Shown here one piece after another: positions 20,825 through 25,830 of a stretch of 64,000 nucleotides of DNA; position 1 is the first letter of the stretch; every line of letters begins with the position of its first letter. The notes below the pieces were generated by a model, which saw nothing but the letters and a program-made list of their open reading frames with translations, did not search any database and was not told the DNA's origin. The DNA comes from Litoreibacter halocynthiae (GTDB lineage: Bacteria > Pseudomonadota > Alphaproteobacteria > Rhodobacterales > Rhodobacteraceae). The stretch lies in assembly GCF_004365635.1 (NCBI RefSeq), contig NZ_SOBH01000002.1, forward strand, positions 682,001 through 746,000. The letters run 5' to 3'. The position numbers were made by a program, and so were the translations under genes.

Positions 20825-21985
20825 TCAGCTCTGGGCGCGCGTCAGGGCCTGCTCAAGATCATAGATCAGATCATCAGCGTCCTCGATGCCGATCGACAGG
20901 CGCAGCAAACGCGGATGCACCGGAAAACCCTCTCCCGATACGGTCTTGCGATGCTCGATCAGGCTCTCGACGCCACCCAGCGACGTCGCAGGGTAAAACA
21001 CCTCGCAAAATCGCGAAACATCAATTGCCGTTTGTTCGGAGCCATTCACGATGATCGACATCATCCCCCCAAACTGGCCGCCGGTTTGGCGCTTGGCAAC
21101 GTCGTGTCCGGGATCGGAGGGCAGTCCGGGATACAGGACCTTCTCGATATGCGGGTGGCCTTCGAAATGCTTCGCGACGGCCATCGCATTCTGGCAGGAC
21201 CGCTCCACCCGCAAGAACAGTGTGCGCATTCCCCGGATCAACAACCACGCATCGAAAGAGTGCAGGACGGTACCTTGCAGCTTGCGCACCATGCAGATGT
21301 CTTCCCAGAACTGGCCCGTTTGCCGCACGGACAGCACGCCAGCGGTGACGTCTGAATGACCGTTCAAATACTTGGTGGCGGAGTGGAATGAAATGTCTGC
21401 CCCGAACTCCAGTGCCCGCGTCAGGTTGGGTGGCGTGCCTGTACAATCCGTCAGCAGCTTCGCCCCTGCCCCATGCGCAATCTCCGCTGCGGCGGCGATG
21501 TCGGTGACCTCCCAGTCGGGGTTGTTGGGCGTCTCCACCCAAACCAACGCCGTTTCGTCCGGGCGCACCGCCTCTGCCAGCTCCTCAAGGTTGCCAGCGG
21601 CATAGGACGTCAGCTTGATACGGCCATTTGCCTCATATCTCTGAAGCTGCGCCAGAACGCCGTGATACATAACCTTCGGCGCGACGACATGCGCGCCGGT
21701 TGGTAAATGCTCGATAACAGCTGTGCAGGCCGACATGCCGGATGCAAAAAGCAGCGACTCGGCCGCACCCTCCAACTCAGCGATGACAGCTTCTGCCTGC
21801 GCGGTGGTTTGGCTGCCGTCACGGCGATACCAATACGGCTTACGAACTTCATAATTCTCGTCCCGCGCGTAAGTCGCCGTAGGCTGTATCGAGGGGATGA
21901 CGGCACCGGTCTCGGCCTCAACAAAGTGCAGCGCTTGCGCCACGCGGGTCGCAAGGGAGGGCGTTCGGTTGCTTTTATTGGTCAT
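20825..21985 (-). CDS. Cys/Met-metabolism PLP-dependent enzyme (cystathionine gamma-synthase-like)
   Basis: A 386-residue fold-type I PLP enzyme, started at the ATG giving MTNKSNRTPSLATRVA. The PLP lysine is Lys205 in SATKYLNGHSDV, the ring-binding Asp is Asp180, and GGVESLIEHR is the usual C-terminal motif. It differs from typical family members: the DNTF motif reads DCTG, and the phosphate-binding YSRxxNPT motif reads YRRDGSQTT. It may use another substrate, so naming it MetB, MetZ or MGL would overreach. It lies between secE and nusG in the same direction. Confidence 0.85.
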   Translation of the reverse strand: MTNKSNRTPSLATRVAQALHFVEAETGAVIPSIQPTATYARDENYEVRKPYWYRRDGSQTTAQAEAVIAELEGAAESLLFASGMSACTAVIEHLPTGAHVVAPKVMYHGVLAQLQRYEANGRIKLTSYAAGNLEELAEAVRPDETALVWVETPNNPDWEVTDIAAAAEIAHGAGAKLLTDCTGTPPNLTRALEFGADISFHSATKYLNGHSDVTAGVLSVRQTGQFWEDICMVRKLQGTVLHSFDAWLLIRGMRTLFLRVERSCQNAMAVAKHFEGHPHIEKVLYPGLPSDPGHDVAKRQTGGQFGGMMSIIVNGSEQTAIDVSRFCEVFYPATSLGGVESLIEHRKTVSGEGFPVHPRLLRLSIGIEDADDLIYDLEQALTRAQS

Positions 21986-22088
21986 TGTGGGCGTCGCCTC
22001 TGATAGAAAACTCAGGGGCAATCTGACGCGAAAACACAAGGCGCTGCCAGCGCTTTCTACAAAATACAGCAGAGGCGGTGGTGAAGGT

Positions 22089-22355: not shown

Positions 22356-23141
22356 TTAGTCATCCTCGCGCAGCCGTGCGAACTGGTCGATCACCATCTG
22401 CATATAGGGCGTCCCGTCGGGATGCGTGCCATCTAACACTTCGTCGACCTGAGACACATGACCTTTAACTTTGGTGTCAATCAACGTCAGTGGCGCGCCG
22501 ACTTGTTCCGCACGTGCAGCACCCAACTGAGCATTGCCGATATTAATAATCCTGTCGTTTGGGCCATGAAACATCAGACAGGGTGGCCCATCCGCCTCCA
22601 GTCGCCAAGGTTGAACAACCGCAGAGCTTATAGCGACCACAGCATCCGGGCGTGATACCCGCCGCACCCAGGGCATTGGCGGATAGGCCAAAGCCAAGCC
22701 GGCGATTCCACCAGCGGAAATTCCCAACACTCCAAGTTTTCGGGACGCGATACCCAGACGTTCGCCTTCGACCCAAAGGTACTCGATCGCGTTGGACATA
22801 TCTTCCATCGCAGCGATGAATGCCGCCCCGTAGAGGTTGGGCGACATGTCCAGCCCCACCTTTTCGGATCGGGCCACTTGAGCCTGAATATGCTCCACAT
22901 CCTCATCGGAGAACGCATCCAGATCAGTTCGCAGGCGATAACTCATGGAGGCCATCGCGAAACCCGCATCCGTCAGTTTTTGGGCGAAGTGGCCCGTTTC
23001 GACATGCGCGCGGTGTCCACGGCGAAAGCCTCCCCCGTGCGCGTATATCACACAGGCATCAGCGGTCAGGGTATCAGGAAGGTAGAGGTCAAGCTCGAGC
23101 TTATGACGAGGATCGTACACAATGTCGGAGACACATTTCAT
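22356..23141 (-). CDS. alpha/beta hydrolase (HSL/esterase-like)
   Basis: A 261-residue hydrolase. The oxyanion motif HGGGF is at 35-39, the nucleophile elbow GISAGG gives Ser142, the acid is probably Asp196 in HGPNDRI and the base His228 in KGHVSQ, so the catalytic triad is complete. This is the hormone-sensitive-lipase / carboxylesterase pattern. No signal peptide is present, so it should act in the cytoplasm. The substrate is unknown. It lies 36 nt downstream of tRNA-Trp and 72 nt upstream of secE, on the same strand. Confidence 0.85.
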   Translation of the reverse strand: MKCVSDIVYDPRHKLELDLYLPDTLTADACVIYAHGGGFRRGHRAHVETGHFAQKLTDAGFAMASMSYRLRTDLDAFSDEDVEHIQAQVARSEKVGLDMSPNLYGAAFIAAMEDMSNAIEYLWVEGERLGIASRKLGVLGISAGGIAGLALAYPPMPWVRRVSRPDAVVAISSAVVQPWRLEADGPPCLMFHGPNDRIINIGNAQLGAARAEQVGAPLTLIDTKVKGHVSQVDEVLDGTHPDGTPYMQMVIDQFARLREDD

Positions 23142-23177: not shown

Positions 23178-23253
23178 TGGCAGGGGATGAGAGACTCGAA
23201 CTCACGACCCTCGGTTTTGGAGACCGATGCTCTACCAACTGAGCTAATCCCCT
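23178..23253 (-). tRNA. trnW: tRNA-Trp (anticodon CCA)
   Basis: Minus-strand cloverleaf with a perfect 7-bp acceptor stem AGGGGAT / ATCCCCT, D-loop AGCTCAGTTGGTAGAGC, anticodon loop CTCCAAA and T-arm GTTCGAGTC. The 3' CCA is encoded (23178-23180). tRNA-Trp ahead of secE-nusG is a classical arrangement, here interrupted by a hydrolase gene. Confidence 0.97.
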
Positions 23254-23297: not shown

Positions 23298-23375
23298 GGG
23301 ATCATCTGCTCCAAAAAGTTAAAATTGAGTTCCTGCCCACCAAACTCGCGAGCGGTCTGGCAGAAAAGCAACGCC

Positions 23376-23537
23376 TTACTGACGCGGCAGGCCGGACAGT
23401 ATGGATACCAATGCATCGAGCTGCGCTTCAGACAACGTCTCCAATCCTGTCTGGACGGATTGGTCGGTGGAATCAGCGATTGCGGGGCCAGCAAGAAGGC
23501 CAAGCACCACGCCAAAAGACAGTATTACATTTTTCAT
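23376..23537 (-). CDS. 53-residue exported small protein
   Basis: A very short gene starting MKNVILSFGVVLGLLAGPAIA, which is a textbook signal peptide with cleavage after AIA. The mature product is only about 32 residues and contains ETLSEAQLDALVSIL, a likely amphipathic helix, and ends in PRQ. An AAGGA ribosome-binding site sits 9 nt before the ATG, which supports a real gene. No family is recognised. It lies about 120 nt upstream of tRNA-Trp, behind an unusually AT-rich control region with an inverted repeat. Confidence 0.7.
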   Translation of the reverse strand: MKNVILSFGVVLGLLAGPAIADSTDQSVQTGLETLSEAQLDALVSILSGLPRQ

Positions 23538-23692
23538 TGCTTGCAGTCCTTGCGACGATCACTCGAAGCCCTTCGAGCACGGGTCGAACCACACGGGCTC
23601 GACACCGCTCTATTTGGCCATTTGAATCGCATTTAACAGACACGAACCTGTCACCGTCGATCACGCCAGCGTGGTTTAGTTGCAAAAGCTAC

Positions 23693-23717
23693 ATAAGTAT
23701 TTGTTTTACTTATTATA
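23693..23717 (-). promoter_or_regulatory. AT-rich operator-like inverted repeat with a -10 box
   Basis: A perfect 7-bp inverted repeat ATAAGTA / TACTTAT with a 7-nt spacer (23693-23713) overlaps a minus-strand TATAAT (23712-23717). No good -35 box is found at the right distance, which suggests activator dependence. It lies about 155 nt upstream of the small exported protein. The rest of 23538-23809 shows no gene. Confidence 0.4.
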
Positions 23718-23809
23718 TTTGAAATCATTCCAATCCGCACAGCTCCTGTGCAGGAAAGCCCGATCCCGCAGGCGCGCTTGATAATGGTCGCCAAACTGCC
23801 CGGCCCCGC

Positions 23810-24466: not shown

Positions 24467-24593
24467 AAAAACGGCCTTTGTGGGTCTGGATTAAACTTTA
24501 AACCAGATCGCAGCTCTGCCCGCCACCCTGCCATACGTTTTGCCGACACTTTGCCGACGCCTTGCAGACCGCTATTTTTCGGCCCCTTCAAGG

Positions 24594-24620
24594 AAAAAGG
24601 CCGCCCCCTTCGGAGCGGCC
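24594..24620 (-). terminator. intrinsic terminator of tuf copy 2
   Basis: Minus-strand GC hairpin GGCCGCTC / GGGCGGCC (24599-24620) followed by TTTTT (24594-24598). It resembles the terminator of tuf copy 1 but is not identical. Confidence 0.85.
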
Positions 24621-24654
24621 TTTTCTATTCAGTAACACCCGAGTGGGTGACAGA

Positions 24655-25830
24655 TTAATCTGTAATCTTCGACACAACACCAGCGCCAACAGTCCGGCCA
24701 CCCTCACGGATAGCGAAGCGGAGGCCTTGCTCCATGGCGATCGGCGCGATCAGCTCGACGTCGAACTTCAGGTTGTCGCCTGGCATAACCATTTCCGTGC
24801 CTGCTGGCAGGTTAACAGTGCCCGTGACGTCCGTTGTGCGGAAGTAGAACTGCGGACGGTAGTTCGCGAAGAACGGCGTGTGACGGCCACCCTCTTCTTT
24901 GGTGAGGATGTAGGCCTCGGCCTCGAACTTGGTGTGTGGTGTCACCGAGCCCGGCTTGACCAGAACCTGACCACGCTCAACGCCGTCACGGTCGATGCCG
25001 CGCAGCAGGACGCCGACGTTGTCGCCAGCTTCACCGCGATCCAGCAGTTTGCGGAACATTTCAACACCGGTACAGGTGGTTTTTGTGGTGTCACGGATGC
25101 CCACGATGGACAGCTCGTCACCAACGTTAACCACACCGCGCTCGATACGGCCGGTCACAACCGTGCCGCGACCGGAGATCGAGAACACGTCCTCGATTGG
25201 CAGCAGGAACGGCTGGTCAACAGCGCGCTCTGGTGTCGGGATGTATTCGTCAACAGCGGCCATCAGCTTGCGGATGGAATCCTCGCCGATTGCTTCGTCG
25301 CGGCCTTCCATAGCGGCCAGAGCCGAGCCCGGGATCACTGGAATATCGTCGCCAGGATAGTCGTAGGAAGACAGCAGCTCGCGGATTTCCATTTCAACCA
25401 GCTCGAGCAGCTCGTCGTCATCCACTTGGTCAACTTTGTTCATGTAAACGACCATCTTCGGGATACCAACCTGGCGGCCCAGCAGGATGTGCTCGCGGGT
25501 TTGTGGCATCGGGCCGTCAGCCGCGTTCACAACCAGGATCGCGCCGTCCATTTGGGCAGCACCGGTGATCATGTTTTTGACGTAGTCGGCGTGGCCGGGG
25601 CAGTCAACGTGGGCGTAGTGGCGGTTTTCGGTCTCGTACTCGACGTGAGCGGTCGAGATCGTGATGCCACGGGCTTTTTCTTCGGGCGCGCCGTCGATTT
25701 GGTCATACGCTTGGAAATCGCCGAAATACTTCGTGATTGCGGCTGTCAGCGTGGTTTTGCCGTGGTCAACGTGGCCGATTGTGCCGATGTTGACGTGTGG
25801 TTTAGAGCGTTCAAACTTTTCCTTAGCCAT
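24655..25830 (-). CDS. tuf: translation elongation factor Tu, copy 2
   Basis: Second EF-Tu gene, 391 residues, identical in protein to the copy at 1347-2522 apart from the last residue (Asp instead of Glu). All G motifs are intact. DNA identity is complete or nearly so over long internal stretches, with synonymous differences gathered in the last 190 bp and a short block near the start. It stands upstream of the tRNA-Trp/secE cluster, where many proteobacteria carry tufB. It has its own terminator and is a single-gene unit. Confidence 0.98.

What the first reader, a model, noticed from the sequence alone, without database searches (positions are those of the whole stretch)
23376..23717. A 53-residue exported peptide behind an AT-rich operator next to tRNA-Trp
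Seen: a good ribosome-binding site, a clean signal peptide and a mature peptide of only about 32 residues with one likely amphipathic helix. Upstream is a very AT-rich stretch with a perfect ATAAGTA/TACTTAT repeat overlapping TATAAT. The gene is too short for usual gene calling. Inference: a regulated secreted or periplasmic micro-protein, possibly a signal or membrane-active peptide.
Basis: partly seen in the sequence, partly recalled or inferred. Interest (0 to 1): 0.5.

Follow-up and report, generated by a model that had tools for sequence, protein, structure and literature searches.

The report
Unclassified family of exported small proteins
The 53-residue reading frame is a real gene under selection for a tiny, apparently exported protein, and it looks like the short form of a so far unclassified family of small exported proteins in Rhodobacterales bacteria that share a control region and often sit beside the same tRNA gene.

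Summary
The ORF at 23376-23537 (-) is a genuine gene. A full-length relative sits just upstream of tRNA-Trp in 11 of 21 genomes of its genus (Litoreibacter). Synonymous changes far outnumber amino-acid changes, and the end LSGLPRQ is kept in 10 of 11. The conserved control elements lie elsewhere: a distal dyad (TGCAC-N7-GTGC), a promoter-proximal block (CA-N8-TGA, then CGTG[T/A]) and two covarying leader hairpins. A model of this leader led to other genera, where the block precedes longer (70-85 aa) exported proteins with a related core. A profile of that core matches 88 of 394 genomes of the window's GTDB family, often as tandem genes or fused repeats; 18 of the 30 best loci carry tRNA-Trp within about 1.5 kb. 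Pfam, NCBIfam, PHROGs and PDB gave no family match. Best reading: a small envelope or periplasmic protein on its own mRNA, activated by an OmpR-type response regulator; CenR is the leading but weakly supported candidate. Function is inferred, not shown. A tRNA-Trp leader peptide, a non-coding RNA and a membrane toxin are disfavoured.

The parts
23376..23537 (-). 53-aa small exported protein (short form), stop codon included
   Evidence: full-length relatives in 11 of 21 genus genomes; pS/pN; alignment A2
23475..23537 (-). signal-peptide-like part MKNVILSFGVVLGLLAGPAIA (likely cut after Ala21)
   Evidence: Ala21 in 11 of 11, A or V at 19 in 11 of 11; no predictor was available
23379..23474 (-). 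likely mature peptide, 32 residues, with helix around LSEAQLDALVSILSG and end LSGLPRQ
   Evidence: LSGLPRQ in 10 of 11; AlphaFold2 helix 37-48, mean pLDDT 81 in residues 41-50 but 65 over all
23547..23551 (-). ribosome-binding site AAGGA
   Evidence: sequence
23561..23578 (-). leader hairpin 2
   Evidence: 10 sequences: 2 of 5 pairs changed on both sides, 86.0% of cells paired
23585..23601 (-). leader hairpin 1; a similar GTCGG-type inverted repeat stands near this place in several other genera (by eye)
   Evidence: 10 sequences: 3 of 6 pairs changed on both sides, 88.3% of cells paired; other genera by eye
23625..23677 (-). promoter-proximal block: CA-N8-TGA, GTGA, CGTGTCT
   Evidence: CA-N8-TGA in 11 of 11 carriers; alignments; Litoreibacter-only HMM hits family loci elsewhere
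23736..23752 (-). distal dyad TGCAC-N7-GTGC
   Evidence: 11 of 11 carriers, 0 of 38 non-carriers of the short form, 3 of which have too little upstream DNA; GCAC-N7-GTG[CA] in 12 of 27 family upstream regions, shuffles mean 0.55
23330..23366 (-). hairpin after the stop codon, terminator-like
   Evidence: fold; in this species no stronger than shuffles (z 0.20); z at or below -3.30 in 7 of 11 carriers
23178..23253 (-). tRNA-Trp, neighbouring gene, with its own conserved CTTGCAAA-type upstream sequence

Best explanation
Shown: the ORF is a protein-coding gene under purifying selection with a signal-peptide-like N terminus. Well supported: it is the short form of a family of small exported proteins in the window's GTDB family that share a core (about LT-x-AQ-xxx-L-xx-I), a control region and often the tRNA-Trp neighbourhood. 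Inferred: transcription starts downstream of the CGTG block, driven by an OmpR-type response regulator binding direct half-sites just upstream of the -35 region (candidate CenR), perhaps with a second factor at the distal GCAC-N7-GTGC dyad. The mRNA begins with hairpins that protect it or tune translation and ends before the tRNA promoter. The product is exported by Sec, cut after Ala21, and the released 32-residue acidic peptide with one amphipathic helix works in the periplasm or at the envelope as a dose-dependent maintenance or stress protein, in the manner of small envelope proteins of other bacteria.
For: Coding and conservation. Dyad in 11 of 11 carriers and 0 of 38 non-carriers, 35 of which have enough upstream DNA. 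Leader covariation: 5 of 11 pairs changed on both sides, score 0.301 against 0.162 in shuffles, 0 of 500 as high. A leader model built from Litoreibacter alone led to small exported proteins in other genera, two of them beside tRNA-Trp. Locus L047, found earlier by the peptide profile, carries the block without having been chosen for it and encodes two tandem long forms. Profile-profile match of short and long cores: probability 91.7, score 27.7; best of 200 column shuffles 14.4. Family profile in 88 of 394 genomes at E<=0.01, about 4 expected by chance. tRNA-Trp in 18 of the 30 best loci. Dyad-to-block spacing 85-88 nt in 10 of 11 family regions with both. For CenR: published sites resemble the block and lie mostly upstream of -35 of envelope and exported genes (PMC9275681); a PWM of them reaches p<=0.05 in 7 of 11 Litoreibacter regions.
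Against: CenR PWM: p<=0.05 in only 5 of 27 wider-family regions, and in 15 of 38 on the opposite strand, a control blurred by the near-symmetry of the site; in L001 and L002 the best-scoring place is the second half of the block, not CA-N8-TGA. 16 of 27 family upstream regions lack dyad, block anchor or both by my patterns, 9 of these 16 with tRNA-Trp nearby. A long-form HMM alone gives the short peptides only E 0.13 or worse, so the homology rests on about 21 columns plus shared control region and place. Absent in 10 of 21 genus genomes by profile. The post-stop hairpin is not above shuffles in this species, L002 or L004; the leader of this species folds only mildly better than shuffles (z -1.77). 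Poor structure model (mean pLDDT 65). No expression, export or phenotype data.
Confidence: 0.6

Rival explanations
1. The exported peptide is processed to a short signalling peptide (pheromone-like): the strongly kept C terminus LSGLPRQ is the active part, sensed by neighbours.
For: LSGLPRQ in 10 of 11 relatives, much better kept than the rest; size fits; two pheromone models are among the weak NCBIfam hits.
Against: Those hits are at E 0.029 and 0.16, one member each, and probably driven by the signal peptide. Long forms in other genera continue past this point with a different end, and fused multi-domain forms are odd for a pheromone. No receptor or protease gene was sought.
Confidence: 0.15
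2. Leader peptide or attenuator controlling tRNA-Trp (or secE-nusG) downstream.
For: Same strand, 122 nt upstream of tRNA-Trp.
Against: No Trp in the peptide. tRNA-Trp keeps a CTTGCAAA-type upstream sequence of its own in carriers and in genus non-carriers. A strong hairpin separates the two in 7 of 11 carriers (not in this species by z-score). In other genera family genes can lie on the strand opposite to tRNA-Trp, e.g. L219 and L220. The peptide is constrained at the protein level.
Confidence: 0.03
3. Membrane-active toxin or antimicrobial peptide (type I toxin-like).
For: Small, hydrophobic N terminus, amphipathic helix.
Against: Conserved cleavage-site residues; acidic mature part; no plasmid or phage relative; tandem near-identical intact copies in other genera would be costly; no RNA family other than tRNA and one sub-threshold hit nearby (Rfam only, antisense RNAs not otherwise sought).
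Confidence: 0.05
4. The locus is a regulatory RNA and the ORF is incidental.
For: Two covarying hairpins in the leader.
Against: Codon-level constraint, pS 0.730 against pN 0.319 over all pairs; the long forms share the amino-acid pattern.
Confidence: 0.03
5. The distal dyad is an NtrC site and the gene is nitrogen-controlled.
For: GCAC-N7-GTGC equals the enterobacterial NtrC spacing (recalled, from no call).
Against: The 5 exact TGCAC-N7-GTGCA places in the own genome do not stand in front of genes that I recognised as nitrogen genes (judged from raw ORF translations by eye). Degenerate sites were not searched; the window's own dyad is itself not an exact match to that pattern.
Confidence: 0.1

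Closest known systems
CenKR direct regulon of Rhodobacter sphaeroides (PMC9275681)
   Same: The block CA-N8-TGA resembles published CenR sites (such as TCACCTCCTCGTGAG, TTACATTCGCGTGAT); many targets there carry signal peptides; 28 of 31 sites lie upstream of -35, co-directional
   Different: Binding not tested; wider-family regions score poorly with the published sites; whether any target of that table belongs to this family was not tested, as it gives gene ids only
DUF4148 (PF13663), small exported proteins of unknown function
   Same: Size, signal peptide, weak matches in 3 proteins (E 0.0034, 0.084, 0.096)
   Different: The two printed scores, 18.2 and 13.7 bits, are below the cut-off of 27 (the third was shown without a score); not a member
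Small periplasmic stress proteins such as DUF1471 (recalled, from no call)
   Same: Tiny exported proteins in several paralogues
   Different: Analogy only; that family did not appear in the Pfam scans
Phr-type exported pheromones
   Same: Signal peptide plus short conserved tail
   Different: Only weak hits (E 0.029 and 0.16); long and fused forms do not fit

Membership tests
The family described here | Core LT-x-AQ-xxx-L-xx-I | tested here: met
   hhalign A3 against A9: probability 91.7; 0 of 200 column shuffles reach the score; single-HMM search alone marginal, E 0.13 or worse
The family described here | Shared promoter-proximal block upstream | tested here: met
   Litoreibacter-only HMM at 12 bits or more: 9 of 30 family loci (4 of the 9 first found by the leader model), 1 of 77 other loci (L047, itself a family locus; the 77 also hold family locus L098, no hit), 0 of 30 reversed. 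So shared with a part of the family, not all
The family described here | C-terminal helix (about SGDSEsEKRaxVraLl) of the long forms | tested here: not met
   Short forms stop at SGLPRQ; hence called a short variant
CenR regulon | TGA-N8-TGA type site upstream of -35 | tested here: inconclusive
   p<=0.05 in 7 of 11 genus, 5 of 27 wider family, 15 of 38 opposite strand; the -35 is not mapped
CenR regulon | CenR binding and CenR-dependent transcription | not testable with these tools
   needs ChIP or EMSA and a mutant
DUF4148 | Score above Pfam cut-off | tested here: not met
   18.2 bits and 13.7 bits against 27
Leader peptide of an amino-acid attenuator | Codons for the cognate amino acid | tested here: not met
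   no Trp in the peptide
NtrC-controlled gene | Dyad shared with nitrogen genes of the genome | tested here: inconclusive
   5 exact places, none before a gene recognised as a nitrogen gene; degenerate sites not searched

The most novel reading that the evidence does not exclude
An undescribed family of exported micro-proteins, tandem-amplified in many genomes and present in roughly a fifth of the sampled genera of the window's GTDB family, runs in large part on one old two-site control cassette (distal dyad, CGTGA block, leader hairpin) often anchored beside tRNA-Trp, and serves as an abundant envelope component whose dose is set by gene copy number. Litoreibacter has trimmed it to a single-helix 32-residue form.
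Probability: 0.5. Interest if true: 0.65.

Novelty: new variant of a known kind. Interest (0 to 1): 0.5.

Why it matters
Small exported proteins are easily missed by annotation. Here a control-region model, not the protein, opened up a family for which Pfam, NCBIfam, PHROGs and PDB searches gave no match above cut-off or beyond chance, in 88 of 394 genomes sampled, with tandem genes and fused repeats. The shared cassette makes its regulator and purpose directly testable in culturable bacteria, and the route may serve for other such families.

Tried and rejected
The ATAAGTA/TACTTAT operator: rejected, in 1 of 11 carriers. Full-length profile A2 in the GTDB family: mostly signal-peptide-only matches, apart from L047. 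Mature-only A3: mostly fragments (10 hits read, none a family gene), apart from L151, which holds two family repeats. Peptide in viral contigs, plasmids and phages: nothing; two long forms in plasmids and one in phages: nothing. Rfam: tRNA-Trp and one sub-threshold suhB-like hit. Families: best weak hits were phrog_8372 at E 0.0041 and NCBIfam BRANT at 0.0093 for short forms, NCBIfam ExtJ at 0.00096 with 19.5 bits against a cut-off of 52.5 and a designed PDB protein (9zem) at 0.0017 over 13 residues for long forms; PHROGs on long-form cores gave one hit at 0.097. None taken as membership. NtrC: unsupported. CenR: inconclusive. ChvI: its published motif TTGC-N3-GCAA (passages of PMC9731502) does not look like the block. 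Ten further weak leader-model loci in the genus (L190-L199): 8 were looked at (not L191, L198), and a family HMM over all 218 loci then held gave no convincing match in any of them; taken as chance. Papers: PMC9275681 seen as passages plus section 11 part 1; PMC9731502 as passages; all others as search listings with starts of abstracts. No paper on this family showed in the searches, which is no proof of absence; the library lacks most subscription journals.

Rows left out: L010 from the leader alignments A4 and A6; L237, L238 and L245 from the 27 upstream regions; G012 from the neighbourhood counts (no true tRNA-Trp match).

Full report
OBSERVATION. The minus-strand ORF 23376-23537 encodes MKNVILSFGVVLGLLAGPAIADSTDQSVQTGLETLSEAQLDALVSILSGLPRQ, with AAGGA shortly before ATG. 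tRNA-Trp lies 122 nt downstream on the same strand. The AT-rich tract and its ATAAGTA/TACTTAT repeat are real, but the repeat occurs in 1 of 11 carriers, this one.

IS IT A GENE? A single-protein search found relatives in 10 of 21 genus genomes at E<=0.01; a profile found full-length relatives in 11 of 21. All 11 lie just upstream of tRNA-Trp on its strand. Titles of matching named contigs give the genus as Litoreibacter; NCBI places it in Roseobacteraceae, Rhodobacterales, whereas the genome searches use the GTDB family. Ala21 is in 11 of 11; the end ILSGLPRQ is in 9 of 11 and LSGLPRQ in 10 of 11. Over all 55 pairs pS is 0.730 and pN 0.319; over the last 22 codons 0.721 and 0.212. This is protein-level constraint. 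The tRNA-Trp neighbourhood was read in 20 genus genomes and 29 other genera; the short form stood there in 11 of 20 and 0 of 29 (same-strand ORFs only). A tree from nusG, L11 and L1 of 20 genomes (one row without nusG) scatters carriers over the main branches of the genus, which fits one old gene with several losses. G002, a near relative, has the acetyltransferase directly before tRNA-Trp and no cassette.

CONTROL REGION. Three conserved things stand upstream. A dyad TGCAC-N7-GTGC is in 11 of 11 carriers and 0 of 38 non-carriers of the short form; 3 of the 38 have too little upstream DNA to show it. It is also present in the 5 carriers whose locus shows no acetyltransferase, so it belongs to the cassette. 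A block of about 53 nt (23625-23677) holds CA-N8-TGA in 11 of 11, then CGTGTCT or a near form. The leader has two hairpins; on 10 sequences (L010 left out) 5 of 11 pairs show changes on both sides, covariation score 0.301 against 0.162 in shuffles, 0 of 500 as high. In this species alone the leader folds only mildly better than shuffles (z -1.77). After the stop codon a strong hairpin (z -3.30 or lower) is present in 7 of 11 carriers; L006 has -1.89, and L001, L002 and L004 are not clearly above shuffles. tRNA-Trp keeps its own CTTGCAAA-type upstream sequence in carriers and genus non-carriers. Together these argue for a separate mRNA and against a tRNA-Trp leader peptide.

A WIDER FAMILY. A covariance model from 10 Litoreibacter leaders recovered 10 of 11 carriers (the missed G020 was not in the model) and gave weak matches (E<=0.1) in 22 other genomes of the 295 searched. 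Several stand in front of small exported proteins: L200 and L201 (both beside tRNA-Trp), L205, L207, L209 and L213; L216 is cut off by a contig end; others look like chance. An HMM of the block, made from 17 sequences of which 6 are from other genera, was run on all 218 loci then held and also hit L047, which had come from the peptide-profile search: two tandem 72-residue exported proteins beside tRNA-Trp. A profile of 16 mature segments matched 88 of 394 genomes at E<=0.01 per genome, about four being expected by chance. The own genome is among the 88 with E 0.007, but the place was not in the listed rows, so I do not know whether it is this gene. In the 30 best loci, one per genome, 18 have tRNA-Trp within about 1.5 kb; some others end early on short contigs. 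At least 12 of the 30 loci hold two or more separate family genes, and at least 9 (L220, L221, L226, L227, L229, L234, L236, L241, L248) hold a reading frame with two or more domains, by my reading of the rows, where one domain can be split in two; G120 has 13 matches. Short and long cores align by hhalign with probability 91.7 over 21 columns; the best of 200 column shuffles scores 14.4 against 27.7. A long-form HMM alone gives the short peptides only E 0.13 and worse, so the homology claim leans on the profile match, the shared block and the shared place.

SHARED ARCHITECTURE. A Litoreibacter-only block HMM reaches 12 bits in 9 of 30 family loci (15 bits in 4), in 1 of 77 other loci (L047, itself family) and in 0 of 30 reversed sequences. 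Four of the nine (L219, L222, L228, L231) had first been found by the leader model and are not independent; L220 is the L047 place. In 27 upstream regions (3 of the 30 loci left out) the dyad GCAC-N7-GTG[CA] occurs in 12, one of them at an odd place, against 0.55 in shuffles, and a CGTGA...CGTGA-TTC pattern in 12 against 0.02; the latter pattern was written after looking. The distance from dyad to block anchor is 85-88 nt in 10 of the 11 regions with both and 81-82 in the other. In Litoreibacter it is 107 (5 species), 139 (2), 151 (1) and 161-162 (3); except for 81-82 these keep roughly the same helical phase (1.5 to 4.5 modulo 10.5; noticed after the fact). The other 16 of 27 regions lack dyad, anchor or both by these patterns, 9 of them with tRNA-Trp nearby, so the cassette is not universal.

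REGULATOR. The block resembles published CenR sites of R. sphaeroides (TTACATTCGCGTGAT before rpoH1, TCACCTCCTCGTGAG before a putative outer membrane protein), which lie mostly upstream of -35 and serve many exported envelope proteins (PMC9275681). A PWM of the 31 sites is at p<=0.05 in 7 of 11 Litoreibacter regions (in L001 and L002 by the second half of the block) but in 5 of 27 wider-family regions, and in 15 of 38 on the opposite strand. CenR stays a candidate (about 0.3, my estimate). Direct half-sites some 10-11 nt apart suit an OmpR-type regulator in general.

KNOWN FAMILIES. Pfam, NCBIfam and PHROGs scans and PDB sequence searches gave no match above a curated cut-off or convincingly beyond chance for short forms or long forms; the best weak hits are listed under Tried and rejected. 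The AlphaFold2 model has low confidence overall (mean pLDDT 65), with a fair helix at 37-48.

HOW IT LIKELY WORKS. Shown: coding gene, conserved control region. Well supported: membership in a wider family. Inferred: OmpR-type activation, leader hairpins protecting or tuning the mRNA, Sec export and cleavage after Ala21, and a dose-dependent role at the envelope. The function itself is an inference from export, tandem dosage and CenR-like sites; no phenotype is known.

Noticed in passing
L047 / L220 (G111), L227, L229, L234, L236: Proteins with two or more fused copies of the same roughly 50-residue domain, with tRNA-Trp in the same locus.
   Followed up: partly
L085 / L233 (G003): A genus member without the short form carries a long-form-like protein on the strand opposite to tRNA-Trp.
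   Followed up: partly
20825-22039 (-) of the window: A protein that looks like a PLP-dependent Cys/Met-metabolism enzyme (by eye, no search) sits between secE and nusG, genes that are usually adjacent (recalled).
   Followed up: no
22356-23141 (-) of the window: A BD-FAE type alpha/beta hydrolase (Pfam) stands between tRNA-Trp and secE, and a relative follows tRNA-Trp in most of the genus loci.
   Followed up: no
24583-24655 (-) of the window: Sub-threshold Rfam match to suhB/mmgR RNA (23.5 bits against 41) between the acetyltransferase and tuf; possibly the tuf terminator.
   Followed up: no
L151 / L226 (G401): A two-domain member with no block hit and no tRNA in the locus, suggesting that the family is also used under other control.
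   Followed up: no
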